From the NCBI GenBank assembly GCA_030841035.1, contig JAVEDI010000079.1, positions 1 to 63,681 on the forward strand: a stretch of DNA of 63,681 nucleotides, given 5' to 3'. The position numbers and the translations under genes were made by a program. This DNA comes from Actinomycetota bacterium (GTDB lineage Bacteria; Actinomycetota; Actinomycetes; JACCUZ01). The notes below the pieces were generated by a model that worked only from the letters and a program-made list of their open reading frames with translations, did no database searches and was not told where the DNA came from. Each line of letters begins with the position of its first letter. Positions within the stretch are counted from its first letter, which is position 1. Below are positions 42,513 through 58,857 of the stretch, piece by piece.

Positions 42513-43804
42513 GTCCCACGCAGGAGCGCGGCGCGGCCGGCCAGGCCGACGGGTCGGACGAGGTCGGCCGCGCCGTGGCCCGGGCGCACCGGCGGGAGTG
42601 GGGCTACGTGCTGGCCTCGACCGCCCGGGTCACCCAGGACCTCGGTGTCGCCGAGGAGTGCGTCCAGGAGGCGTACGGCGTCGCGCTGCGCGCGTGGCGC
42701 CGCGACGGCATACCCGCCAACCCGGCGGCCTGGCTCACCACGGCCGCCCGGCGCAAGGCGATCGACCGGCTGCGCCGCGAGCAGTCGCTGCGCGCCAAGC
42801 TGCCGCTGCTGCTCGAGCCGGAGGCGACGCCGTACGCACCCGTGGCCGCTGAGGAGGCAGGCGTGCTCACCGACGACCGGTTGCGGCTGGTCTTCACCTG
42901 CTGCCACCCCGCCCTCGCCCGCGAGGCGCAGGTGGCGCTCACCCTGCGGCTGCTGTGCGGGCTCAGCACGGCGGAGATCGCCCGGTCCTTCCTGGTCCCG
43001 GAGCCGACGATGGCGGCTCGGCTGACCCGGGCGAAGAAGAAGATCGCGGCGGCGCGGATCCCCTACCGGGTGCCCGGCGAGACCGAGCTGCCGGAGCGCC
43101 TGGACGCGGTGCTGACCGTGGTCCACCTGCTGTTCACCACCGGGCACGCGGCCCCCGCCGGCGACACCCTGGTGCGGGCCGACCTCGTGGAGCGGGCGAT
43201 GGAGCTGGGCAGGGTCCTCGTGGACCTCATGCCCGACGAGCGCGAGGCGCGCGGGCTGCTGGCCCTCATGGTGCTCACCGACGCGCGCCGACCGGCCCGC
43301 ACGGGCGCGGACGGCCGGTTGCTGCTGCTCGAGGAGCAGGACCGATCGCTGTGGGACCGCGGCGCGCTCGACGAGGGCCGCCGGCTGGTCGTCGAGGCGG
43401 TCCGCTCGGCGCGGCCGGGGCGCTTCACGCTGCAGGCCGTCGTCGCGGCGCTGCACGCGGACGCGCCCAGCTATGCGACGACCGACTGGCCTGCGCTGCT
43501 GCGGGTCTACGACGCCCTGCTGGAGGTGTGGCCGACCCCTGTCGTGGCGCTGAACCGCACGGTGGCACTCGCGATGGTGGCCGGTCCCGCCGTGGCGCTG
43601 CGCGAGGTGGAGGCGCTGGAGGCCGCCGGGCGGCTGGAGGGCTACCGCTACCTGCCCGCCACCAAGGCCGACCTGCTGCGCCGCCTGGGCCGCTACGAGG
43701 AGGCCCGGGCGGCGTACCACGCCGCGAACCGGCTGTCCGACAACGGGGCCGAGCGGGCGTTCCTCGCCCGGAGGCTGGCTGAGGTGGGCCGTCAGCAGGC
43801 GTAG
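42509..43804 (+). CDS. ECF42-group RNA polymerase sigma factor
   Basis: 431 residues from the GTG at 42509. Sigma-2 region about 25-90 (RREWGYVLASTARVTQDLGV, ANPAAWLTTAARRKAIDRLR), sigma-4 region about 130-185 (EAQVALTLRLLCGLSTAEIA, FLVPEPTMAARLTRAKKKI), then a long C-terminal helical extension of TPR type (DUF6596; EARGLLALMVLTDARRPART ... LNRTVALAMVAGPAVALREV) characteristic of ECF42. The extension is known to be needed for activity. Pairs with the DGPF gene. Its last 13 bases overlap a convergent gene end. Confidence 0.94.
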   Translation: MSPTQERGAAGQADGSDEVGRAVARAHRREWGYVLASTARVTQDLGVAEECVQEAYGVALRAWRRDGIPANPAAWLTTAARRKAIDRLRREQSLRAKLPLLLEPEATPYAPVAAEEAGVLTDDRLRLVFTCCHPALAREAQVALTLRLLCGLSTAEIARSFLVPEPTMAARLTRAKKKIAAARIPYRVPGETELPERLDAVLTVVHLLFTTGHAAPAGDTLVRADLVERAMELGRVLVDLMPDEREARGLLALMVLTDARRPARTGADGRLLLLEEQDRSLWDRGALDEGRRLVVEAVRSARPGRFTLQAVVAALHADAPSYATTDWPALLRVYDALLEVWPTPVVALNRTVALAMVAGPAVALREVEALEAAGRLEGYRYLPATKADLLRRLGRYEEARAAYHAANRLSDNGAERAFLARRLAEVGRQQA

Positions 43805-44769
43805 CGGCAGGGGTACATGTCCCAGAACCGCAGGTCACCCTGCGGGTCGAACAGCCAGGCACCGTCACCCATCCAGGTCGGTGCGCCGGTGACGTTGGCG
43901 AAGGCCGGCATGCTCAGACCCCAGTACTGGGTGTCCGCGGTGTTGGTGCCCTGCCCCACGCGCAGGCGGAGGTTTCCGCCCGGCTGGACCACGCTGCCGG
44001 GCGGGAACACGTAGCCGTGGGCCTTCACGCCGCGGTAGGCGGCGTCGCGGACCCACCAGCCGTCCAGGCTGACCGGCGCGGCACCGTGGTTGCTGATGTC
44101 GATCCACTCGCCGTTGACGTTCACCGCGTCGTTGCCCGCGGCGTCCCAGTTGATGTGCACCGACAGCTGCGCGTCCTGCGCCGGACCGACGCCGCAGTGC
44201 GTCGGGTCGCCCCACATGCCCACATGGGCAGCGGCGGCCCGCTGGGCCCGGACCATGTAGTCCAGGTTGTGCGTGTACTCGTCGCCGAGCAGGTCGGGCA
44301 GCCCGAGGCCCGCGTCCAGCTGCAGCCCCCCCGTGTCGACCCACCCGCCGGCTTGCAGCACCTCGACGGATCGGCGGGGTCGGATGTTCTTCATCGAGTG
44401 ACTGCTCGCGTGCTGCGAGGTGAGCCGGACTCGCCGGTGGTTGATGAGTGCGTACAGGTTCTTGGCGGCCTCGACGCCCCAGCACTCGCCGCGATAGCCA
44501 CTGGGCTTGAGGCTGTAGACGTGCAGCTCCATGGCCTGCAGACCGATGTAGCGGACGCGGACCGGTGTGGAGGTCCGGTCACCGGCCACGTCGACGTCGA
44601 CCGTGTCACCGTCGTCCACCAGCTTCACCATGCCGTACCGTGCCCCGCCCGCCGCCGCGGAGGGTGCTCCGGTGAGCAGGACCGGACCGAGCAGGCCGCC
44701 GGTGGCCAGCAGCGCGGCCACGAGGGCACGCAGTCGCAGGCGGCGACACGATCGCGCAGGTCGGGACAT
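43792..44769 (-). CDS. Secreted thermonuclease-like protein with lamin-tail domain, copy A
   Basis: 325 residues. Signal peptide about 15-40. Residues about 45-190 look like a staphylococcal-nuclease OB fold: MVKLVDDGDTVDVDVAGD followed by VRVRYIGLQAMELH, with the Asp/Thr metal-site block and Arg/Glu present, and RVRLTSQHASS. Residues about 205-315 are a lamin-tail domain (NVNGEWIDISNHGAAPVSLD, GYVFPPGSVVQPGGNLRLRV). A conserved end, DPQGDLRFW..YPCRYAC, is shared with the next gene. ATG 44769 is chosen; an in-frame GTG at 44796 would overlap the upstream gene. Probable extracellular nuclease, unproven. Confidence 0.8.
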   Translation of the reverse strand: MSRPARSCRRLRLRALVAALLATGGLLGPVLLTGAPSAAAGGARYGMVKLVDDGDTVDVDVAGDRTSTPVRVRYIGLQAMELHVYSLKPSGYRGECWGVEAAKNLYALINHRRVRLTSQHASSHSMKNIRPRRSVEVLQAGGWVDTGGLQLDAGLGLPDLLGDEYTHNLDYMVRAQRAAAAHVGMWGDPTHCGVGPAQDAQLSVHINWDAAGNDAVNVNGEWIDISNHGAAPVSLDGWWVRDAAYRGVKAHGYVFPPGSVVQPGGNLRLRVGQGTNTADTQYWGLSMPAFANVTGAPTWMGDGAWLFDPQGDLRFWDMYPCRYAC

Positions 44770-44777
44770 GACGCGGT

Positions 44778-45731
44778 TCAGCACCCGAACCGGCACGGGT
44801 ACATCTGCCAGAACCGCAGGTCACCCTGGGGGTCGAACAGCCAGGCGCCGTCGCCCATCCACTGCGGTGCGCCCGTCGCGTTGGCGAAGACGGGAGAACG
44901 AAGGCCCCAGTGCTGCGTGGTCGCCGTGCGGCCCCCGCGCCCCATGCGCAGCCGCAGATGGCTGCCCGGGGCGATCACGGTGCCGGCGGGGAACACGTAG
45001 CCGTGGGCCTTCACGCCGCGATAGGCAGCGTCGCGGATCCACCAGCCGGCGAGGGTCACCGGCGCGGCGCCGTGGTTGGTGATGTCGATCCACTCTCCGT
45101 TGACGTTGCGCGCGTCGTTGCCCGCGGCGTCCCAGTTGATGTTGACCGACAGGACCGCGTCCTGCGCCGGACCGTATCCGCACTTGACGGGGTTGCCCCA
45201 CATGCCGACGTGGTTCGCCGCTGCCTCCTGAGCCCGGCCCAGGTAGTCCAGGTTGGGCGCGTACTCATCTCCGAGCAGGTCGGGCAGCGCGAGGCCGGCG
45301 CTGATCAACAGGGCGCCGGTGTCGGTCCAGACCCCGTTCTGCAGCACGGCCACCGAGCGACGCAGCCGGCCGTTGCCGGCCCGGCTGCTGTCGTGGCGCG
45401 CCGTGAGCATCACGCGCTTGCGGTTGGTCAGCGAGTAGAGGTAGCGGGTCGCGTCGACGCCCCAGCATTCGCCGCGGATCTTGGACAGGGAGTGGCTGTA
45501 GCGATGCAGCTCCATCGCCTGCACCCCGATGTAGCGCACGCGCGCCGGTTGCGACGTGCCGTCACCGGCGATGTCGACGTCGACGGTGTCGCCGTCGTCC
45601 ACGAACGTCACCTTGCCGTAGCGGGCACCGCCCGCCTCGGCGGGGGCCGCGCCGCTCAGCGCAGCGGGCACCAGCAGGGCGGCGGTGGCCACCAGGGCCG
45701 CGGTGAGGGTACGGATTCGCTGGAGGTGCAT
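44778..45731 (-). CDS. Secreted thermonuclease-like protein with lamin-tail domain, copy B
   Basis: 317 residues and the same plan as copy A: signal peptide (about 8-30, AALSGAAPAEA), SNase-like part (KVTFVDDGDTVDVDIAGD, VRYIGVQAMELHRYS), central lamin-tail (NGEWIDITNHGAAPVTLAGW, GYVFPAGTVIAPGSHLRLR), and the end GDLRFWQMYPCRFGC. DNA identity between the copies is very high at the 3' end. 8 bases separate this stop from the start of copy A, so they are co-transcribed. A tandem duplication. Confidence 0.8.
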   Translation of the reverse strand: MHLQRIRTLTAALVATAALLVPAALSGAAPAEAGGARYGKVTFVDDGDTVDVDIAGDGTSQPARVRYIGVQAMELHRYSHSLSKIRGECWGVDATRYLYSLTNRKRVMLTARHDSSRAGNGRLRRSVAVLQNGVWTDTGALLISAGLALPDLLGDEYAPNLDYLGRAQEAAANHVGMWGNPVKCGYGPAQDAVLSVNINWDAAGNDARNVNGEWIDITNHGAAPVTLAGWWIRDAAYRGVKAHGYVFPAGTVIAPGSHLRLRMGRGGRTATTQHWGLRSPVFANATGAPQWMGDGAWLFDPQGDLRFWQMYPCRFGC

Positions 45732-45812: not shown

Positions 45813-46037
45813 TCAGCCGTCACGACGGTCGAGGAACAGGGCTCGTCGTGGACAGCCGGCGACCGCCTGACCCGCGCGGCGCTGCTCGCGGGCGTCCAGG
45901 TCGCGCTCGGCGACGATCGGGTAGCCCCAGGAGTCGAGGCGCACGAGCCCCGCAGCCAGGTGGGCGCACATGCCCACGCCGTCGCAGGCCACCGGGTCGA
46001 CGCGCAGCCGCGTCGACGTCCGGTCCGGCGCGCCCAT
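45813..46037 (-). CDS. Three-cysteine ferredoxin
   Basis: 74 residues. RVDPVACDGVGMCAHLAAGL, later AGCPRRALFL: Cys-x5-Cys...Cys-Pro, with Gly where the second Cys of a CxxCxxC cluster would be. This is the pattern of actinobacterial 3Fe-4S (or Asp/His-liganded 4Fe-4S) ferredoxins that serve P450s and redox enzymes. Cytosolic. Its ATG overlaps the NuoF-like gene's stop by one base (TGATG), which makes it the last gene of the six-gene minus-strand operon. Confidence 0.9.
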   Translation of the reverse strand: MGAPDRTSTRLRVDPVACDGVGMCAHLAAGLVRLDSWGYPIVAERDLDAREQRRAGQAVAGCPRRALFLDRRDG

Positions 46038-47359
46038 CAGGACTGCACCGGGACCGGCAGCACGGGCGGGTGCCCGACGCCGGCGCACGGTCGGCCCCGC
46101 CGGTGCGCCTCCACGTCCGCGGCGAACGTGCGCAGCGCGCTGAGCGTCATGCGGACCGTGCCGTCCGGGTGGTGGCACCCGCCGCGCCCCGACACCTCCT
46201 CGGCCCAGCGCCGCAGCCGCTTGAGGTCGGCGCGGCCGGCCCGGCCGTCGACCAGCTCGGCGACGACGCCGGAGATGGCGGGCAGCCCGAACACGCAGGG
46301 GCCGCACTGCCGCGCGCTGCTCGCCGCGAGGTACGCCGACACCCGGGCCGTCTCCGCGAGGCCGCACGCGCCGGGAGGCAGCAGCGCCACGACACCGGCA
46401 CCCAGCGAGACGCCGGCCGCGCGCATCGCGGCCTCCTCCACCTGCAGGTCCGCGGCCTGTGACCACGGCAACCAGCTGCCGCCGTACCCACCGAGGAGCA
46501 CCGCCTGCGGCTCGTGGCCGATCGGCCACCCGCCGGCCAGCGCGGCATCGCGCAGCCGCCAGGTCGGCGCGGCCTCGAGGACCGTGCGCCGGCCCTCGGC
46601 GAGCACCGTGACCAGGCTGGAGGGCCGGTGCCCCTCGGCGCCGGTCCGGGCGGCCAGGGCGGCCCGCGCGAGGGTCTCCACGTTGTTGACCAGCGTCGGG
46701 CGCCCGCGGACCCCGTCGACCGCCGCCGGCAGCCGGCGGAACTCCGGCAGCGCCGGGCCGCCGGACAGGGCCCGGACGATCACGCTGGACTCGCCGCTGA
46801 GGTAGCGAGCGGGGCCGGTCACCAGCCGCACGGACGGCTCGACGAGCCCGGCGGCCCGTCGCTCGGCGAGGGCCTGCACGAGGACCCGGTGCAGCTCGTG
46901 CGAGTCGCCGTGGGTCCAGACGACCACCTCGCCCGCGCCGACCGTCTCGGCGGCCAGGGCCAGGCCGTCCAGCACGAGGTGCGGCCGGTGCGCCAGCAGC
47001 GCGGCGTCCTTGGCGCTGGCGGGTTCGCCCTCTGCGGCGTTCGCGACGACAACGGCGGCCTGGCCGCTGCGACGTACGGCGTCGCGCGTCGCGCGCCACT
47101 TGCGGGCCGCCGGGAAGTGCCCGCCGCCGCGGCCGGAGAGGGCCAGCGCGTCGAGCAGCTCGAGCATCGTCTCGGCCGCCGGCCGCGGTCGCGCCCCGAA
47201 CGACTCGAGGTGGTCGGTGAGGCGCTCGGTGACCTCCAGCACGCCGAGGTGCCCCGCCGGGACGACGACCGGTCCGTCCAGCAGGGACGGCAGGGTCAGC
47301 GGATCGGGTGCCGCGTCGGGGCGTGCGGGCAGGTGAGCGACGACGGGCGCGACGGTCAT
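46037..47359 (-). CDS. NuoF-like flavo-iron-sulfur protein
   Basis: 440 residues, related to the NuoF/HoxF subunit that accepts electrons from NADH through FMN. FMN/NADH region: LSGRGGGHFPAARKW and VVVANAAEGEPASAKDAALL, followed by NNVETLARAALAA. The C-terminal Fe-S region reads SSARQCGPCVFGLPAISG and SGRGGCHHPDG. NuoF normally has CxxCxxC plus a fourth Cys; here the first position is Ala, leaving three. The FMN-binding Gly-rich loop is kept. 4-base overlap with the upstream membrane gene. Likely cytosolic donor or acceptor with the ferredoxin. Confidence 0.88.
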   Translation of the reverse strand: MTVAPVVAHLPARPDAAPDPLTLPSLLDGPVVVPAGHLGVLEVTERLTDHLESFGARPRPAAETMLELLDALALSGRGGGHFPAARKWRATRDAVRRSGQAAVVVANAAEGEPASAKDAALLAHRPHLVLDGLALAAETVGAGEVVVWTHGDSHELHRVLVQALAERRAAGLVEPSVRLVTGPARYLSGESSVIVRALSGGPALPEFRRLPAAVDGVRGRPTLVNNVETLARAALAARTGAEGHRPSSLVTVLAEGRRTVLEAAPTWRLRDAALAGGWPIGHEPQAVLLGGYGGSWLPWSQAADLQVEEAAMRAAGVSLGAGVVALLPPGACGLAETARVSAYLAASSARQCGPCVFGLPAISGVVAELVDGRAGRADLKRLRRWAEEVSGRGGCHHPDGTVRMTLSALRTFAADVEAHRRGRPCAGVGHPPVLPVPVQS

Positions 47360-48120
47360 GACCGCTCACCGCCGTGCGGGGTCGCGACGGCGTGCATGCC
47401 GTGCCGGGTGGCCGAGCCCGGTGCCGCCGCGAGCTCGGCGACCCGGTCGGCCGGTGTTCGCGCGACGTAGCGCCAGACGGCCAGCGCCAGCACCGCCACG
47501 CCCGTGGCGACGTAGAGCCCCATCAGCGCCGGCGTGTCGATGCCCGCGTAGACGCCGTGCGCCCACACGAGCACCAGTGAGACCGACGCCACCTTGTGCA
47601 CCGGCCACCACAGGCGGGCGATCAGCCGCCGGCCCGAGAAGGCGGCGGTGAGGCCGGCCAGCAGGCCGGCGTAGACGCCGAGCACCCCGAGCGTCACGGC
47701 CACCGGCCGGTAGTCCGCGCCCATCGGCACGAAGGTGCCTCGCCAGCCGACGTGCGCGTAGGAGTCGGTGGCCAGCACGACCACGTGCAGCACCGTGAGC
47801 GCGAGCGTGAACACCGCGAGGCTGACGTGCAGCCGGATGCGGGTCACCGCGCTGGGCCGGCGCAGTCGGCTGCGCGCCGGGTGCGAGAGCACGAGGCCCG
47901 TGGCCACCAGCAGCAGCAGCAGGACGTAGGACGACAGGCCGGCAGCGCGGCCCAGGATCCACGGCGCGTTGCGGTTGCCCGACACCGACTGTGCCGCGGT
48001 GCCGACGAACCAGCCGGTCAGGCCGGCGCTCACCGTCGTCGCGACCACGACGAGCAGCGTCGTCACCGCGCGCCGGGTCGCCCGGCGAGCGGTCAGCGGG
48101 GCGTCCAGATCACCGGTCAC
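47356..48120 (-). CDS. Ferric-reductase-like transmembrane protein
   Basis: 254 residues. Six hydrophobic segments between about 18 and 235; conserved His in RIRLHVSLAVFTLALTVLHV and LWWPVHKVASVSLVLVWAHG are candidates for haem b ligands. No FAD or NAD(P) domain is attached, so electrons must come from a partner, presumably the NuoF-like protein and ferredoxin in the same operon. Start GTG 48120 overlaps the upstream ApbE gene by 11 bases; the stop overlaps the NuoF-like gene by 4. Confidence 0.88.
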   Translation of the reverse strand: MTGDLDAPLTARRATRRAVTTLLVVVATTVSAGLTGWFVGTAAQSVSGNRNAPWILGRAAGLSSYVLLLLLVATGLVLSHPARSRLRRPSAVTRIRLHVSLAVFTLALTVLHVVVLATDSYAHVGWRGTFVPMGADYRPVAVTLGVLGVYAGLLAGLTAAFSGRRLIARLWWPVHKVASVSLVLVWAHGVYAGIDTPALMGLYVATGVAVLALAVWRYVARTPADRVAELAAAPGSATRHGMHAVATPHGGERS

Positions 48121-49072
48121 GCGACACCTGCCAGGAGACGTAGGGGCGCATGGCACGGCTGAGTCCGACGCTGCCGTCCGAGCCGACGAGCATGGCCGCG
48201 AGCCCCTGCTCGTCGGCGACCTGGCGGACCCGGCCGCGACCGGCCAGGAACAGTGCCTTGCTCCAGACCTCGGCGAGGGCCGGGTCCGCGGCGACGACGG
48301 TGACCGACAGCAGCCCGCTGCGGGCCGGCCGGCCGGTGCGCGGGTCGATCAGGTGGTGCACGTCCTGGCCGTCGACGCGCCAGTGGCGCAGCCGAACCGA
48401 GGAGGTCGCACACGCGAGATCGCTCAGTGTCAGGACGGCAAGGGGCTCGTCGCCGCCGCGCGGGTCCTCGACCGCCACGTTCCAGCCGGCGCCCTCGGGT
48501 CCGGACCCCGCGGCGTAGAGGTCGCCCCCGGCCTCGACCAGGCCGGCGCGGCCGGCACCGGCCAGCTCGCGGGCAGCCCAGCGGACGGCCAGGCCCTTGC
48601 CGATGCCGCCGAGGTCGACCGGCACGGGGCCGAGGCGCACGGCGTGCTGCCGCTCGTCGAAGCGCGGACGCCAGGTCCGCCGTCCGGGCGGTCGTGGCGG
48701 TGCGGCCGGGCCGGCGGCCACCGCGACCGCGCCGCTGCGGAACGGCAGCGACCGGTCGTAGCCCCACGAGGTGAGGGTCTCGAGCACCCGCGGGTCGAAC
48801 GCGCCGCCGGTCAGCCGGTAGGCGTCGTACGCCTCGCGCAGGGCGGCGTACAGCTCGGCCGGCACCCGGTGCCACTGCCGGGGCGCCGCGTTGACGCGCA
48901 TCAGCGCGCTGCTCGGGTCGAACCGGGTGCAGGTGCTGGCCACGGCGGCCACCACGTCCTCGGCCCGCTGCAGGGCGGCGCGCGCCGCCGCGGTGGGGTC
49001 GACGACATGCAGGTGTACGTCGGTGGCCATCGCGCGGAACGTGTGCTGCAGGTCGGCGGTCGCGGTCGTCAC
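48110..49072 (-). CDS. apbE: FAD:protein FMN transferase (ApbE), copy 1
   Basis: 320 residues. ApbE domain: [78 protein letters not shown] and a C-terminal AEVWSKALFLAG. These bind FAD and Mg2+ and attach FMN to a Thr/Ser of a target protein outside the membrane. No target with an SGAT site is visible in this operon. GTG 49072 overlaps the preceding stop by 4. No clear signal peptide, although family members usually act extracytoplasmically. Confidence 0.9.
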   Translation of the reverse strand: MTTATADLQHTFRAMATDVHLHVVDPTAAARAALQRAEDVVAAVASTCTRFDPSSALMRVNAAPRQWHRVPAELYAALREAYDAYRLTGGAFDPRVLETLTSWGYDRSLPFRSGAVAVAAGPAAPPRPPGRRTWRPRFDERQHAVRLGPVPVDLGGIGKGLAVRWAARELAGAGRAGLVEAGGDLYAAGSGPEGAGWNVAVEDPRGGDEPLAVLTLSDLACATSSVRLRHWRVDGQDVHHLIDPRTGRPARSGLLSVTVVAADPALAEVWSKALFLAGRGRVRQVADEQGLAAMLVGSDGSVGLSRAMRPYVSWQVSRDR

Positions 49073-49509
49073 GAGGCGCCTGTCTTCGTGTGCGCCTTCG
49101 GCGCCGCTGGTGCCGGGCGGCGCACCACCGGTGGCCGGGCGACGTGCACGGTGCCGCTCGAGCGCGGAAGGACCCGGCTGACCGTCGAGCCGCCGGAGCC
49201 CAGCGACTGCCGGGACGGGAGCGGTGCCTGGCGCACCGCGGCGAGCTGGCCCCGCAGCCTGGCCAGTGTCCGGTCCAGCCGCAGGACGCGGGCCCGCTCG
49301 GCCACCGCCGCCTGGCTCAGGGCGAGGTCGCTGCGGCTCAGCCGGCTGTGTGGCGTCGCCGCGGCCGGTGCGGCGCTGACGGGCGTGCTGGACGCCGTCG
49401 GGTCGTGCTGCAGCGCCCACCCGGTGGACAGGGCCATGGCCGCCGCGGCGGCCGGCGCGACCACTGCGGCGACACCCCAGTGGGCTGCCGAGCCGCGCGC
49501 GTCAGTCAT
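49069..49509 (-). CDS. Exported coiled-coil hypothetical protein
   Basis: 146 residues. One hydrophobic segment at about 12-32 (AAVVAPAAAAAMALSTGWAL), then a helical, Arg/Leu-rich part (SQAAVAERARVLRLDRTLAR, LRGQLAAVRQ) that should form a coiled coil, and a Pro/Ala/Ser/Arg-rich end. No cofactor motif (no CxxCH, no SGAT) and no recognised domain. Position two in the operon, with 4- and 8-base overlaps on either side, argues it works with the ApbE/ferric-reductase set, perhaps as a membrane-bound spacer or assembly factor. Confidence 0.7.
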   Translation of the reverse strand: MTDARGSAAHWGVAAVVAPAAAAAMALSTGWALQHDPTASSTPVSAAPAAATPHSRLSRSDLALSQAAVAERARVLRLDRTLARLRGQLAAVRQAPLPSRQSLGSGGSTVSRVLPRSSGTVHVARPPVVRRPAPAAPKAHTKTGAS

Positions 49510-50002
49510 CGCCGTGCTCGTGGTCGTCGTGCTCGTGGTGGTCGTCGCGACTGTCGGACGCGGACCTGGGGTGGCTCACCGGCACCGACGTGCGACTGAC
49601 CGGGAGGGTGTGGGAGACCCGCGCCGGTTCGGGGCGCTGCTGAGCGGCTGCGACCGCGGCTGCTCGCGCCTGAGCCGCGACGCGCGCCTTGGCCCGCGCG
49701 ACCCGCCGCTCGTGTCGAGCCTTGGCCTTCGTCAGCTGCTGGCGGGTGGCAACGACCCGCTCGTCGAGCGCCGTGCGGGCCGCGTGCATGTCGGCGACGT
49801 AGTCCGTCAGGGCCTGCCGCTGCTGGTCGGCGGCCTGCGCGGCCGGGTCCGCGGCTTGGACGGCGAGCGCGCTGGAAGTCCCGGTGGTCGTCGCGGGTCC
49901 GGCGGCACCGACGTGACCGACGGTCACGACGGTGGCTGCGGCGCCCGCGAGGATCCCCGTTGCTGCGGCGACCGTGAGGGCGACGCGACGGGTCCTGTTC
50001 AT
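49502..50002 (-). CDS. Exported coiled-coil protein with His/Asp-rich tail
   Basis: 166 residues. Signal segment MNRTRRVALTVAAATGILAG and onward to about 32. Central Ala/Arg/Lys-rich helix (about 65-130: VVATRQQLTKAKARHERRVA and similar), then a Pro/Ser linker and a C-terminal tail DDHHEHDDHEHGDD with alternating His and Asp that could bind divalent metal ions. First gene of the six-gene operon. Start ATG 50002 has AGGGGGG directly upstream; an in-frame GTG at 50071 is rejected because it extends across promoter-like sequence. No known family. Confidence 0.72.
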   Translation of the reverse strand: MNRTRRVALTVAAATGILAGAAATVVTVGHVGAAGPATTTGTSSALAVQAADPAAQAADQQRQALTDYVADMHAARTALDERVVATRQQLTKAKARHERRVARAKARVAAQARAAAVAAAQQRPEPARVSHTLPVSRTSVPVSHPRSASDSRDDHHEHDDHEHGDD

Positions 50003-52305: not shown

Positions 52306-53499
52306 TCAGCCGTCCCGGTGGTGGCGCAGCGTCTCGTGGTGGTCGGTGGTCCCCGGTGCGGGGTCGGCGTGCACGAGGGCGGCGCTCAGGCGCGGTACGT
52401 CGTGCAGGAGTCGATGCTCGGCCGCCTCGGCGATGTGGTGTGCCCGGACCAGGCTGAGGTCGGCGTCGACGACGATCTCCAGCTCGGCCCTCAGCCGGTG
52501 CCCGATCCAGCGCAGGCGCACGGTGCCCACGTCCAGGACGCCGTCGGTGTCCCTCGCGATCCTCTCCACCTGGTCGACCAGCTGCGGGTCGACCGCGTCC
52601 ATCAGCCGGCGGTAGACGTCGCGTACCGCGTCGCGCAGCACGCTCAGGACGGCGAGGGTGATCAGCAGGCCGACGATGGGGTCGGCCGCCTCGAGGCCGA
52701 ACCCCGCGGCCACCGCACTGAGCACCACCCCGAGCGAGGTCAGTCCGTCGGTGCGCGCGTGCAGCCCGTCGGCCACCAGGGCGGCAGAGCCGATGCGGCG
52801 GCCCACCGTGATGCGGTAGCGCGCGACCAGCTCGTTGCCCGCGAAGCCGACGAGGCCGGCCGCCGCCAGCAGCAGGAGGTGGTCCAGCGGGCGCGGGTCG
52901 AGCAGCCGGCGGACGGCCTCGTAGCCGGCCAGCACCGCGGACGCGGCGATGACCAGCACCACGAAGAGCCCGGCCAGGTCCTCGGCGCGCCCGTAGCCGT
53001 AGGTGTAGCGCCGGCTCGCGGCCCGGCGCCCGAGGACGAAGGCCACCGCGATAGGTACGGCGGTGAGGGCGTCGGCCACGTTGTGCAGCGTGTCGACCAG
53101 CAGGGCGACCGAGCCGGTGAGCGCCACCACCACGGCCTGCAGGAGAGCAGTGACCATCAGGACGACGAAGGAGATCAGCAGCGCCCGCATGCCCTGCTGG
53201 CTGGCCTCGAGCTCGTTGTCGACGGCCAGGGCAGCGTCGTGGCTGTGCGGGGCGACAAGCTGGCGCAGGGCAGCGAACCGGCCTGCAGCGTGCTCGTGGC
53301 CGTGGTGGTCGTGGTGCCGGTCATGGTCGTCGTGCCGGTCATGGTCGTCGTGCCGGTCATCGTCGTGGTGCTGGGCGTGGCGCTGCGCGTGGTGCCCGTG
53401 AGTGCCGTGGACCGCGTGGTTGCCGTGGTTGCGATGCGGTTCGGGCTGGCCGTGCTCGGTGTGCGGCCCGTGCCGGGCCGCGCGGTGCCTGGCCGTCAT
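52306..53499 (-). CDS. Cation diffusion facilitator family transporter with His-rich N-terminus
   Basis: 397 residues. The first 65 residues are strikingly His/Asp/Arg-rich, with tandem units such as HDDHDR repeated three times, and would bind several metal ions in the cytosol. Six membrane segments follow (about 107-320), with the CDF metal sites in LLVDTLHNVADALTAVPIAV and VADGLHARTDGLTSLGV, then a C-terminal cytosolic domain (VERIARDTDGVLDVGTVRLR). Exports Zn2+, Co2+ or similar in exchange for protons. The start is not certain: ATG 53499 lacks a clear ribosome-binding site. Confidence 0.9.
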   Translation of the reverse strand: MTARHRAARHGPHTEHGQPEPHRNHGNHAVHGTHGHHAQRHAQHHDDDRHDDHDRHDDHDRHHDHHGHEHAAGRFAALRQLVAPHSHDAALAVDNELEASQQGMRALLISFVVLMVTALLQAVVVALTGSVALLVDTLHNVADALTAVPIAVAFVLGRRAASRRYTYGYGRAEDLAGLFVVLVIAASAVLAGYEAVRRLLDPRPLDHLLLLAAAGLVGFAGNELVARYRITVGRRIGSAALVADGLHARTDGLTSLGVVLSAVAAGFGLEAADPIVGLLITLAVLSVLRDAVRDVYRRLMDAVDPQLVDQVERIARDTDGVLDVGTVRLRWIGHRLRAELEIVVDADLSLVRAHHIAEAAEHRLLHDVPRLSAALVHADPAPGTTDHHETLRHHRDG

Positions 53500-53684
53500 G
53501 GCCCGCGTCGAGGGAGCCGGCCGCTGGAGCCAGCCGGGCAGCCGGGGCGCCCACGCCTTCACGCTGCCATCGTGCCCGAGCCGCACCGCACAAGCCGTCA
53601 ACCACACGCCGACGCGCCAGAGACGGTCACGCCAGATGGGTCGATGTGCTCCATATCGGGCCGCAAAGGCCCGACAATGCCGCA

Positions 53685-54443
53685 GTGAGCATCTTCCCTC
53701 GGGGCACGTCGCGGCTCGTCGCACTTGTGAGCGCCCTGCTGCTCGTCGGGCTGCTGGCGCCGGCGAGCGCGCTCGCCGGCGCGACGGCGCGACCCTCGCA
53801 GCCGGCGTACACCGCGCCCGACTTCGCGACGGCCGTCCCGGCCACCGCCACGCAGGTCGTGCGCACCGTACGCACCAACCGGTGGTGCTCGCGCGTGTGG
53901 TGCACGGTCACCCAGGCATGGCACAAGCGCGGCGGCCGTTGGCGCATCGTGCGGCTCCCCTCCGGCGAGCGCGCGGTCTTCCGATCGTCGGTCGGGCCCA
54001 AGGGTTTCGCTGCGGTGGGCGCCAAGCGCCAGAGCGACGGCCGTACGCCGAGCGGCGTCTTCCCCATCGCGGTCACCTTCTCGACCTCGGCCACGGCGCC
54101 GGGGGCGATGCCCTGGCGACGCCGGCTGCCGACGTCGAACGTGACCAACTACAAGGGGCTGCTCTACAACACGTGGATCGAGGAGAGTGGGCGGACGGAC
54201 GGCACCCGGCCCTCGATGCGCTGGGGGTTCTGGGTGGGCTACAACCACCCGCGACTGCAGGTCGGTGTCGGCCCGCAACCGGTGCAGGGCATGGGAAGCG
54301 GCATCTTCTACCACACCTCGCGGGCCGGCTACCGGTGGAACCCGACGGAGGGCTGCACCAACATCGGTGACCCTGCCCAGATGCGTTGGGTGCTGACCTG
54401 GCTGCGTCCCGACGCCGACCCGCGAGTCGTGCAGCACCGGTGA
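53685..54443 (+). CDS. Secreted L,D-transpeptidase-like (YkuD-type) protein
   Basis: 252 residues. Signal peptide about 9-35 (ALLLVGLLAPASALA). Catalytic end: SGIFYHTSRAGYRWNPTEGC, then TNIGDPAQMRWVLTWL, with the His and Cys of the YkuD HxxxxxxxxxT/SxGC motif in place, and VAVGAKRQSDGRTPSGVFPI upstream. Such enzymes make 3-3 cross-links in peptidoglycan or anchor proteins; no LysM or Ig domain is present. GTG 53685 is preferred; an earlier in-frame GTG at 53646 would precede the signal peptide. Divergent from the CDF gene. Confidence 0.82.
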   Translation: MSIFPRGTSRLVALVSALLLVGLLAPASALAGATARPSQPAYTAPDFATAVPATATQVVRTVRTNRWCSRVWCTVTQAWHKRGGRWRIVRLPSGERAVFRSSVGPKGFAAVGAKRQSDGRTPSGVFPIAVTFSTSATAPGAMPWRRRLPTSNVTNYKGLLYNTWIEESGRTDGTRPSMRWGFWVGYNHPRLQVGVGPQPVQGMGSGIFYHTSRAGYRWNPTEGCTNIGDPAQMRWVLTWLRPDADPRVVQHR

Positions 54444-56154: not shown

Positions 56155-57504
56155 ATGACGTCGAACGCGATCCCCGGCGGCGCCCTGGCCAGTCTGTCGG
56201 TGGTGACCGCCCTGTGGGCGGCCAACCACGGCCTGACCGACCTGGCCTCCGGCGGCGGAACGGCGCTCATCTCCGCAGGCCGCCTGACCGGCCTGCTCGC
56301 CGCCGACGTGCTGTTGCTGCAGGTGCTTGCCATGGCCCGCATCCCCTGGGTGGAACGGACCTACGGCCAGGACCGCCTGGCGCGCTGGCACCGGCTGGCG
56401 GGGTTCACCTCGTTCAACCTGATGCTCGGGCACATCGTGCTGGTGACCTTCGGCTACGCCGCCACCGGTCGCGTCGCTGTCCTCTCCCAGCTCTGGGACC
56501 TGGTCCGGACCTATCCCGGGATGCTGCTCGCGAGCGCCGGGACCGGCCTGCTCGTCGCGGTGGTGGTCCTCTCGGTCAAGGCGGCCCGCCGCCGGCTGCG
56601 CTACGAGTCGTGGCACCTCATCCATCTCTACGCCTACCTCGGCGTCGGGCTCGCCCTGCCGCACCAGCTCTGGACGGGCACCGACTTCGTCAGCTCGCCC
56701 CCGGCGCGCGCCTACTGGTGGACGCTGTACGCCGGCACGCTCGGCGCCGTCCTCGTCTTCCGGGTCGGCGTGCCCGTGTGGCGCACCCTGCGGCACCGCC
56801 TGGAGGTGACGGGCGTCGTCGAGGAGTCACCGGGCGTGGTGTCGGTGCACCTGCGCGGTCGTCACCTGCACTCCTTGCCCGTGCGGGCGGGGCAGTTCTT
56901 CCTCTGGCGCTTCCTCGACGGAGAGGGCTCCTCGCGCGCGCACCCGTACTCGTTGTCCGCGGCACCGCACCCCGACGTGCTGCGCATCACGGTGAAGGAC
57001 CTCGGTGACGGAAGCCGCGCCCTCGCCGGCGTACGCCCGGGAACCCGTGCCGTCATCGAGGGGCCCTACGGCCGGCTGACCGCCGACCTGCAGAGCCGCC
57101 GTCGCGTGACGCTGCTGGCGGCCGGCATCGGGATCACGCCGATGCGGGCGTTGCTCGAGGAGCTGCGGTACGCCCCCGGCGACGCGACGCTGCTCTACCG
57201 CGCGCGTTCCGAGGAGGAGCTGACCTTCCGCGCGGAGCTCGACGCGCTGGCGAAGCGTCGCGGTGTGCGCGTGGTCTACCTGACCGGGCGCCGCGCGGTG
57301 GAGCCCGGCGAGGACGGCTCGTGGCGGCCCGAGTCGCTCGGGCACTTCACCGACGCGGAGGCCCTGCGCTACCTCGTGCCCGACATCGCCCGTCACGACG
57401 TCTTCCTGTGCGGGCCCGACGGCTGGACAGCCGCGGCCCGGGCCGGCCTGCGCAGGGCCGGCGTCCCCGACGCGCACGTGCACGAGGAGCGGTTCGCATG
57501 GTGA
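56155..57504 (+). CDS. Ferric-reductase/ferredoxin-NADP reductase fusion
   Basis: 449 residues. N-terminal half (about 10-205): six membrane segments with paired His (RWHRLAGFTSFNLMLGHIVL, ESWHLIHLYAYLGVGLALPH) typical of haem-b ferric-reductase-like proteins. C-terminal half: FAD-binding (AHPYSLSAAPHPDVLRITVK), Gly-rich NAD(P) site (VIEGPYGRL, LLAAGIGITPMRALLEEL) and the CGPDG end (DVFLCGPDGWTAAARAGL). This is a self-contained NAD(P)H-to-membrane electron carrier. First gene of a three-gene unit with an FMN-binding protein and ApbE, the standard flavin electron-export set. Confidence 0.93.
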   Translation: MTSNAIPGGALASLSVVTALWAANHGLTDLASGGGTALISAGRLTGLLAADVLLLQVLAMARIPWVERTYGQDRLARWHRLAGFTSFNLMLGHIVLVTFGYAATGRVAVLSQLWDLVRTYPGMLLASAGTGLLVAVVVLSVKAARRRLRYESWHLIHLYAYLGVGLALPHQLWTGTDFVSSPPARAYWWTLYAGTLGAVLVFRVGVPVWRTLRHRLEVTGVVEESPGVVSVHLRGRHLHSLPVRAGQFFLWRFLDGEGSSRAHPYSLSAAPHPDVLRITVKDLGDGSRALAGVRPGTRAVIEGPYGRLTADLQSRRRVTLLAAGIGITPMRALLEELRYAPGDATLLYRARSEEELTFRAELDALAKRRGVRVVYLTGRRAVEPGEDGSWRPESLGHFTDAEALRYLVPDIARHDVFLCGPDGWTAAARAGLRRAGVPDAHVHEERFAW

Positions 57505-57553
57505 GCCGCGCCCGACGACCCGTCCCGCACCTCGACACCACCAGGAGCCACCG

Positions 57554-58012
57554 ATGCGCCGCATAGTGCTCGCGATCGTCTCGACGATCGCCGGGCTGAT
57601 CCTGCTGTTCGGCTACCGCACCTCGACCATGGGCGCCACGGTGGTCGACCAAGGGTCGACCACCGCGTCCTCGTCCGGCCAGACCCAGGCGCCGCAGAGC
57701 ACGACGTCGGGAAGCGGTGGCGGCGCGGGCGCCGGCGACGGCACGTTCACCGGCGACACGGTGGCGACACGCTGGGGCCCCGTGCAGGTCCGCATCACCG
57801 TGTCCGCCGGCCGGATCACCGCCGCCACGGCGGTCACCTACCCCGACGGCAACGGACGTGACCAGCAGATCAACGCCGTCGCGCTGCCGGTGCTCGCCCA
57901 GGAGGTGCTGACCAGCCAGAGTGCGCGGATCGACCACGTCTCCGGCGCGACGGTGACCAGCGAGGGCTACATCGCCTCCCTGCAGTCGGCCCTCGACCAG
58001 GCCAACCTCTAG
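57554..58012 (+). CDS. Membrane-anchored FMN-binding domain protein
   Basis: 152 residues. N-terminal signal anchor (about 3-20), then a Ser/Gly/Thr linker, then an FMN-binding domain (about 65-150) ending DHVSGATVTSEGYIASLQSA. The SGAT motif, with Thr at about residue 133, is the site where ApbE attaches FMN by a phosphodiester bond. Acts outside the membrane as an electron carrier from the fusion protein encoded upstream. AGGAG 6 bases before the ATG. The ApbE gene follows 17 bases downstream. Confidence 0.94.
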   Translation: MRRIVLAIVSTIAGLILLFGYRTSTMGATVVDQGSTTASSSGQTQAPQSTTSGSGGGAGAGDGTFTGDTVATRWGPVQVRITVSAGRITAATAVTYPDGNGRDQQINAVALPVLAQEVLTSQSARIDHVSGATVTSEGYIASLQSALDQANL

Positions 58013-58029
58013 AGGAACCCGGTGCCGAG

Positions 58030-58857
58030 ATGACGACGGTCACCATGCCGCGGCGTGCCTGGGTCGAGCAGGTCATGGGCCTGCCGGTGAGCATCCACCT
58101 GCGAGGCGCCGCCGTACGCGACCCGGGGGTCGCGCACGCGGTTGCGGCGAGCTTCGCCGAGCTTCGGATGATCGACGCGCTCTTCAGCACGTACCGCACC
58201 GACAGCGAGGTGAGCCGGGTCAACACTGGGCAGCTCGCGCTGGCCGACGCGCACCCGATGCTGCGGGAGATCGCCGAGCTGTGCGAGCTCGCCCGCGACC
58301 GCACCGACGGCGGCTTCGACGCGCGCCTGCCCAGCCCGCGCGGCGGGACGTGGTGGGACCCGTCCGGCGTGGTGAAGGGCTGGGCCACCGAGCGCGCCGC
58401 CCGATCCCTCGCCGCGGTCTCCACGCTCGCCGGGCACGACGTCAGCGTCAACGCCGGCGGCGACATCGCCGTCTCCTCGGGGCGGCGGGACTCCACCGGG
58501 TGGCGCATCGGTGTCGAGGACCCGGACCGGCCTGGACGGCTGCTGCTCGTCGTGCCGCTGCGGCAGGGCGGGGTCGCCACCTCGGGCACGGCGGCGCGCG
58601 GCCTGCACATCCACGACCCGCGCACCGGTCGGCCGGCGCAGGCGCTGCGTGCGGCGACCGTCGTGGGACCGTCGCTGCTGTGGGCCGACGTCTACGCGAC
58701 CGCGGCCATGGTCCGCGGGACCGGCGCGCAGGCCTGGCTCGAGGGCCTCCCGGCGTACGACGGCGTGCTGGTCACGGCCGAGGGCCGGGTGACCGCGACC
58801 TCGGGCCTGGCGGGCTTGGCTCCCGGGCAGCCCGAGGTGCTAGCGGCGGACCGCTGA
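58030..58857 (+). CDS. apbE: FAD:protein FMN transferase (ApbE), copy 2
   Basis: 275 residues. ApbE fold with [74 protein letters not shown]. Compared with copy 1 at 48110 it is shorter and reads [11 protein letters not shown] in the FAD/Mg block. Its substrate is presumably the SGAT-bearing FMN-binding protein encoded directly upstream. The 3' end overlaps the aldo/keto reductase gene by 18 bases in convergent orientation. Confidence 0.93.

What the first reader, a model, noticed from the sequence alone, without database searches (positions are those of the whole stretch)
45813..50002. Six-gene overlapping operon for an unusual flavin/iron-sulfur electron route with a metal-binding exported protein
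Order: exported coiled-coil protein with His/Asp tail, exported coiled-coil protein, ApbE, ferric-reductase-like membrane protein without its own flavin domain, NuoF-like protein, three-Cys ferredoxin. Every junction overlaps by 1 to 11 bases, so the parts are meant to be made together. ApbE is present but no protein here carries an SGAT flavinylation site, and two exported proteins with no known domain take the place where the flavinylated carrier would be. The His-rich tail suggests metal (iron, copper or zinc) handling outside the membrane. I infer a NAD(P)H- or ferredoxin-linked electron exporter or metal reductase; this combination is not one I can name.
Basis: partly seen in the sequence, partly recalled or inferred. 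Interest (0 to 1): 0.8.

Follow-up and report, generated by a model that had tools for sequence, protein, structure and literature searches.

The report
Flavin on an unfolded membrane tether
Six overlapping bacterial genes appear to build an electron-export line across the cell membrane whose flavin carrier is not a folded protein but the bare tail end of a small unfolded membrane-anchored protein, which would be a new kind of target for the flavin-attaching enzyme ApbE.

Summary
The six genes and their 1-11 base overlaps are as described. The order ApbE, ferric-reductase-like, NuoF-like, ferredoxin recurs in more than 70 loci. Upstream of ApbE lies a small membrane-anchored low-complexity protein. 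In 66 of them the only column above 90% identity is the last Ser of [ST]-x-[GA]-S (44 of 76 exactly at the terminus; 2.6 expected by shuffling); three Streptomyces homologues end in the perfect motif DSTSGAS. No FMN-binding domain was found in the operons, and seven near-complete genomes have the operon but no such domain anywhere. In the window the genome's only FMN-binding protein lies 8 kb away beside its own ApbE. Operon ApbEs form lineages with changed metal-site residues that match the tail motif. Best reading: a NAD(P)H-to-outside electron exporter whose flavin rides on an unfolded tether. Flavinylation is inferred, not shown; the altered ApbE metal site is the main doubt. The acidic, often His-rich tail of exp1 may bind metal.

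The parts
49502..50002 (-). exp1: N-terminal membrane anchor or signal, helical middle, acidic His/Asp tail ending DD; companion of exp2 in this subtype
   Evidence: counterparts in 14 other loci of the subtype, six of them with an own TGAS-like site
49069..49509 (-). exp2: proposed ApbE substrate, membrane anchor (7-34), one helix (56-93), unfolded tail
49069..49083 (-). C-terminal proposed flavinylation site of exp2 (KTGAS plus the stop overlap); FMN proposed on Ser146
48110..49072 (-). ApbE1, FMN transferase family, no signal peptide, metal-site residues E and K in place of D and T
   Evidence: PF02424 6.6e-55; 1vrm 4.5e-30; tree and residues; N-terminus
47356..48120 (-). ferric-reductase-like transmembrane protein with four invariant heme His (98, 112, 175, 188), no FAD/NAD domain
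46037..47359 (-). NuoF-like NAD(P)H/FMN/Fe-S protein with three-Cys cluster motif
45813..46037 (-). single-cluster ferredoxin with three Cys (CDGVGMC...C)
   Evidence: Fer4_15 5.6e-7; conserved position in the operon
56155..57504 (+). neighbouring classical cluster (not part of the operon): ferric reductase with NAD-binding domain
   Evidence: PF01794 1.3e-15, PF00175 1.7e-8
57554..58012 (+). neighbouring classical cluster: FMN_bind protein with DHVSGATVTS, the only FMN_bind of the genome
58030..58857 (+). neighbouring classical cluster: ApbE2 with canonical metal residues D and T

Best explanation
A transmembrane electron exporter with a domain-less covalent flavin carrier. In the cytosol NAD(P)H reduces the FMN of the NuoF-like protein; electrons pass through its Fe-S cluster to the small ferredoxin, then to two hemes b of the ferric-reductase-like membrane protein, and leave on the outer side to an FMN that ApbE1 has attached as a phosphoester to Ser146, the last residue of exp2. 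exp2 is a membrane anchor, one long helix and an unfolded tail, so the flavin sits on a flexible tether that can reach from the membrane protein into the cell wall and pass electrons to an outside acceptor (metal ion, quinone or partner protein). ApbE1 has no signal peptide, so flavinylation probably happens in the cytosol before the tail is exported. exp1 is a companion anchored protein whose acidic/His tail may hold a metal that is reduced. Shown by sequence: gene order and its conservation, the conserved C-terminal motif, heme His, absence of FMN_bind, N-in/C-out charge bias, lack of an ApbE signal peptide. Inferred: flavinylation itself, direction of electron flow, acceptor, metal role.
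For: Operon order conserved in more than 70 loci. C-terminal [ST]x[GA][ST] exactly at the end in 44 of 76 small proteins against 2.55 expected; perfect D-x-x-[ST]-G-A-[ST] in 4 against 0.03 expected. Ser146 is the only column above 90% in an alignment with 13% mean identity. A motif-bearing small protein occurs in 50 of 70 loci with ApbE and 4 of 31 without (Fisher p=5e-8; opposite strand 2 of 70 and 0 of 31). Seven operon genomes that are 95-100% complete have no FMN_bind, and NqrB/RnfD or DUF2271 are not above cut-off. Tail motif and ApbE lineage co-vary. Tail outside by charge bias in 72 of 76. Not explained by ribosome-binding sites. Published: a seven-residue motif at a terminus suffices for ApbE and loss of its Asp has minor effect (PMC12052999). 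Four invariant heme His in 83 homologues; fold nearest STEAP1/NOX5/cytochrome b561.
Against: No experiment. ApbE1 has E and K, and other operon ApbEs N and T, where the Asp and Thr metal ligands of known ApbEs sit; alanine at that Asp abolishes or greatly lowers activity in FmnB (PMC8906456). The window's motif has His, not Asp, six residues before the Ser; Ser is a poorer acceptor than Thr. Signal-less ApbE and an outside tail need export after modification. Window exp1 lacks the motif that six relatives have. Some loci end otherwise, e.g. Acidimicrobia.
Confidence: 0.7

Rival explanations
1. ApbE1 flavinylates the FMN_bind protein of the neighbouring classical cluster in trans, and the small proteins are unmodified structural or metal-binding parts.
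For: An FMN_bind protein with DHVSGATVTS lies 8 kb away and is the only one in the genome.
Against: That protein has its own adjacent ApbE2 with canonical residues; FMN_bind-linked ApbEs form a separate clade; seven near-complete genomes with the operon have no FMN_bind.
Confidence: 0.08
2. The operon ApbE is no longer a protein-FMN transferase (altered metal site): it acts as an FAD pyrophosphatase that supplies FMN to the NuoF-like protein, and the C-terminal motif serves another purpose such as docking to the membrane protein.
For: E/K or N/T at the metal-1 ligands; FAD pyrophosphatase activity is known in some ApbE (PMC4767422).
Against: The motif has the form of the ApbE target, including perfect matches in Streptomyces; it is rare where ApbE is absent; it co-varies with the ApbE lineage; His and Ser of the catalytic triad are kept.
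Confidence: 0.15
3. Metal-handling reductase: exp1 binds iron or copper outside and the membrane protein reduces it; flavinylation is secondary.
For: Acidic, often His-rich exp1 tails ending DD in the subtype; PF01794 proteins are linked to iron reduction (PMC8238504); a His-rich cation efflux gene is nearby.
Against: exp1 exists only in the subtype while the single small protein with the motif is universal; some tails lack His; no metal transporter is conserved in the operon.
Confidence: 0.3
4. The conserved C-terminus is a DNA-level effect of translational coupling (stop/start overlap, ribosome-binding site for ApbE).
For: The last codon often reads TCA/TCG so that TGA overlaps an ATG/GTG start.
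Against: Only the third base is so constrained; many loci do not overlap yet keep Ser; Shine-Dalgarno-like sequence in 3 of 59 and all four Gly codons in use; the same motif lies inside some exp1 far from any start and in Chloroflexi with ApbE elsewhere.
Confidence: 0.03

Closest known systems
MsrQ-like flavinylation clusters, those with a NuoF-like protein (Meheust et al. 2021, PMC8238504)
   Same: PF01794-type membrane protein, ApbE, NuoF-like NAD(P)H entry, mainly Actinobacteria.
   Different: No FMN-binding domain protein; a small unfolded protein with a C-terminal motif instead; ApbE without signal peptide, which that survey's filter removed; separate three-Cys ferredoxin.
Known ApbE substrates (FMN_bind, NqrB/RnfD, DUF2271, DUF3570, Flavodoxin_4, FMN_red extensions; PMC8238504, PMC11334425)
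   Same: [ST]GA[ST]-like site next to apbE; FMN_red substrates also have a site on an unstructured C-terminal extension.
   Different: All of these hold the flavin in or beside a folded domain or membrane protein; here there is no such domain.
Flavin-tag (Tong et al. 2021, cited in PMC12052999)
   Same: A seven-residue motif at a protein's terminus is enough for ApbE.
   Different: An engineered tag; here it would be natural, with a physiological role.
Listeria flavin-based extracellular electron transfer (PplA/FmnB)
   Same: Gram-positive; covalent flavins outside the membrane made by an ApbE-family enzyme.
   Different: PplA has two Thr sites in FMN-binding domains and FmnB is exported (own knowledge); no NuoF-like, ferredoxin or ferric-reductase-like partner (own knowledge).

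Membership tests
MsrQ-like flavinylation system | PF01794 membrane protein next to apbE | tested here: inconclusive
   26.9 bits against a cut-off of 28, but four heme His invariant in 83 homologues and STEAP/NOX-like fold
MsrQ-like flavinylation system | FMN-binding domain protein in the cluster (typical, not always required) | tested here: not met
   none in the operon; 0 of 66 small proteins match FMN_bind
MsrQ-like flavinylation system | NAD(P)H entry by a NAD-binding domain or NuoF-like protein | tested here: met
   PF01512 and PF10589
ApbE FMN transferase | PF02424 above cut-off | tested here: met
   186.9 bits against 25.6
ApbE FMN transferase | catalytic His and Ser | tested here: met
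   HHLIDPRTG and ATSS aligned to 1vrm
ApbE FMN transferase | metal ligands Asp and Thr | tested here: not met
   E and K in 14 of 14 of this lineage
ApbE FMN transferase | transferase activity | not testable with these tools
   needs an assay
ApbE substrate motif D-x-x-[ST]-G-A-[ST] | [ST]GA[ST] | tested here: met
   TGAS at residues 143-146 of exp2
ApbE substrate motif D-x-x-[ST]-G-A-[ST] | Asp six residues before the acceptor | tested here: not met
   His140 in the window; Asp present in L104, L110, L111, L138, L141
NuoF of complex I | TIGR01959 cut-off and CxxCxxC cluster motif | tested here: not met
   150 bits against 559; first Cys replaced in the whole family

The most novel reading that the evidence does not exclude
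A widespread, undescribed class of ApbE substrate without any flavin-holding domain: a natural 'flavin on a string', with FMN on the C-terminal Ser of an unfolded membrane tether. It is served by signal-less ApbE lineages with rebuilt metal sites, in one of which a Lys may stand in for a metal ion.
Probability: 0.6. Interest if true: 0.85.

Novelty: new variant of a known kind. Interest (0 to 1): 0.75.

Why it matters
Known flavinylated carriers hold the flavin in or beside a folded domain that tunes it. A bare flavin on a flexible tail would be a far simpler way to carry electrons across a Gram-positive wall. It would give a substrate to many apbE genes in Actinobacteria, Acidimicrobia, Solirubrobacterales, Dormibacterota and Chloroflexi that domain-based and signal-peptide-based surveys pass over. 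The lineage-specific metal-site residues of ApbE, matched to the substrate motif, make enzyme-substrate co-evolution directly testable with peptides.

Tried and rejected
FMN_bind in the operon: none. Use of the neighbouring FMN_bind protein in trans: unlikely. Other known substrates NqrB/RnfD and DUF2271: none above cut-off in 12 genomes. DNA-level explanation of the C-terminus: rejected. Twin-arginine export signal: RR before the TM in 60 of 75 against 48 expected by shuffling, too weak to claim. Plain homology searches with exp1 or exp2: mostly low-complexity noise, so synteny had to be used. One literature query failed on syntax; the others found no description of such a substrate, but only open-licence papers are held.
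Full report
Observation. All six genes exist as described on the - strand, with overlaps of 8, 4, 11, 4 and 1 bases and third-position GC of 0.87-0.95. Pfam names ApbE, a ferric-reductase-like membrane protein (just below the family cut-off), a NuoF-like protein and a single-cluster ferredoxin; exp1 and exp2 match no family, and NCBIfam adds nothing for them. The NuoF-like protein is far below the NuoF cut-off (150 against 559 bits), and its family has lost the first Cys of the CxxCxxC motif.

A scan for [ST]GA[ST] shows that exp2 ends in AHTKTGAS. The only FMN_bind domain of the genome is in the same window (57773-57997 +), in a protein with DHVSGATVTS, preceded by a ferric reductase with NAD-binding domain and followed by a second ApbE. 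So the window holds two flavinylation systems about 6 kb apart: a classical one, and one without FMN_bind.

Conservation. NuoF-like relatives were found in related genomes and in named genomes. Around them the order ApbE, ferric-reductase-like, NuoF-like, ferredoxin recurs in more than 70 loci of Actinobacteria, Acidimicrobia, Solirubrobacterales and others; some Chloroflexi have ApbE after ferredoxin. Directly upstream of ApbE there is a small low-complexity protein with one N-terminal membrane segment. Two forms exist: a single small protein (most loci), and the window's subtype with exp1 and exp2 (16 loci examined, exp1 seen in 15).

The C-terminus. With a selection rule that ignores the C-terminus, 44 of 76 small proteins end exactly in [ST]x[GA][ST] (2.55 expected from shuffles of the same tails), 35 have [ST]G[AG][ST] within the last eight residues (1.5 expected), and four have the complete D-x-x-[ST]-G-A-[ST] (0.03 expected). 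In an alignment of 66 with 13% mean column identity, the only column over 90% is the window's last residue, Ser146 (63 S, 1 T); position -3 is S or T in 62 and position -1 is G or A in 61. Three Streptomyces loci end in DSTSGAS and one Actinomycetota MAG in DAYTGASGG. The published minimal motif is D-x-x-[ST]-G-A-[ST] with FMN on the last residue; a seven-residue tag at a terminus suffices, and loss of the Asp had minor effects in one system (PMC12052999). Ribosome-binding sites do not explain it.

Controls. The same detector finds a motif-bearing small membrane-anchored protein in 50 of 70 loci with ApbE and 4 of 31 without, and in 2 of 70 and 0 of 31 on the opposite strand. Streptomyces-type loci with ferric-reductase-like, NuoF-like and ferredoxin genes but no ApbE have none, whereas Chloroflexi and Dormibacterota with other gene orders have it (VSGGS, VSGASH, VTGGS, ITGGS). 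FMN_bind is absent (E up to 0.1) from whole genomes G005, G012, G017, G026, G032, G038 and G050, 95-100% complete, which carry the operon; NqrB/RnfD and DUF2271 are not above cut-off there.

The enzyme. ApbE1 is a long-form ApbE; 71 of 76 operon ApbEs, this one included, lack a membrane or signal-like segment near the N-terminus. It keeps HHLIDPRTG, the ATS Ser and the GGIGKG loop. In a tree of 90 ApbEs, all 20 FMN_bind-linked ones form one clade (support 0.998) with D(0)/T(+4); the window's lineage is another (0.996) with E/K in 14 of 14; the remaining operon ApbEs have N/T in 55 of 55 readable ones. D280 and T284 are metal ligands in E. coli Ftp (PMC4767422), and metal-binding Asp301 is needed in FmnB (PMC8906456). 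The tail follows the lineage: Ala before the Ser in 14 of 16 of the E/K group against 6 of 50 in the others (p=5e-8). This is both the best hint of enzyme-substrate co-evolution and the main doubt about activity.

The wire and the topology. Four His (98, 112, 175, 188) are invariant in 83 ferric-reductase-like proteins. The AlphaFold2 model (pLDDT 84) is a helical bundle whose nearest solved folds are STEAP1, NOX5 and cytochrome b561, with weak E-values but probabilities near 1. In 72 of 76 small proteins the side before the membrane segment is the more positive, so the tail should be outside. exp2 is modelled as a membrane helix (7-34), one further helix (56-93) and an unfolded remainder.

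Mechanism (inferred). NAD(P)H, FMN and Fe-S of the NuoF-like protein, ferredoxin, two hemes b, FMN on exp2 Ser146, outside acceptor. Because ApbE1 looks cytosolic, the tail would be flavinylated before export, which spares the cell an FAD exporter. exp1 shares the anchor-helix-tail build; its tail is acidic, often with His, mostly ending DD, and in six relatives carries its own TGAS-like site. Metal binding is plausible and untested.

What is known. Meheust et al. 2021 describe MsrQ-like clusters in Actinobacteria, 31 of them with a NuoF-like protein, but their search dropped ApbE and FMN_bind genes without signal peptide or lipidation site. Later work added folded substrates (PMC11334425). 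I found no account of a domain-less C-terminal substrate, within an open-licence library.

Limits. Loci share ancestry, so p-values overstate independence. Small genes were picked by rule, not by curated annotation. Flavinylation, direction of flow and acceptor are not shown.

Noticed in passing
window 56155-58857 (+): A classical flavinylation cluster: ferric reductase with NAD-binding domain, FMN_bind protein with DHVSGATVTS, and a second ApbE, about 6 kb from the operon and on the other strand.
   Followed up: partly
window 46037-47359 (-) and relatives in alignment A1: The NuoF-like family has lost the first Cys of the CxxCxxC cluster motif (SAGQCGPC ... GRGACxHPDG), leaving three Cys and a conserved nearby His; its cluster type is open.
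   Followed up: partly
loci L122, L123, L132, L133, L135, L139, L150: Mostly Acidimicrobia: the small protein ends in C-[YT]-[TS]-[TS]-PSG-x-x-x-C-x, a possible disulfide hairpin, instead of SGGS; unexplained variant next to the same ApbE.
   Followed up: no
window 52306-53724 (-): Cation diffusion facilitator (Cation_efflux, ZT_dimer) with a long N-terminal His/Asp repeat, between the two flavinylation clusters.
   Followed up: no
window 43792-44796 and 44778-45731 (-): Tandem paralogous secreted proteins (the second one scanned: lamin-tail domain with a weak nuclease-like match) whose genes overlap by 19 bases, directly downstream of the operon.
   Followed up: no
loci L118, L125, L145, L148, L149, L155, L156, L163: Streptomyces and other actinomycetes have a related ferric-reductase-like, NuoF-like and ferredoxin set with no ApbE in the locus and no motif protein; in some the membrane protein has a long low-complexity C-terminal extension.
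   Followed up: partly
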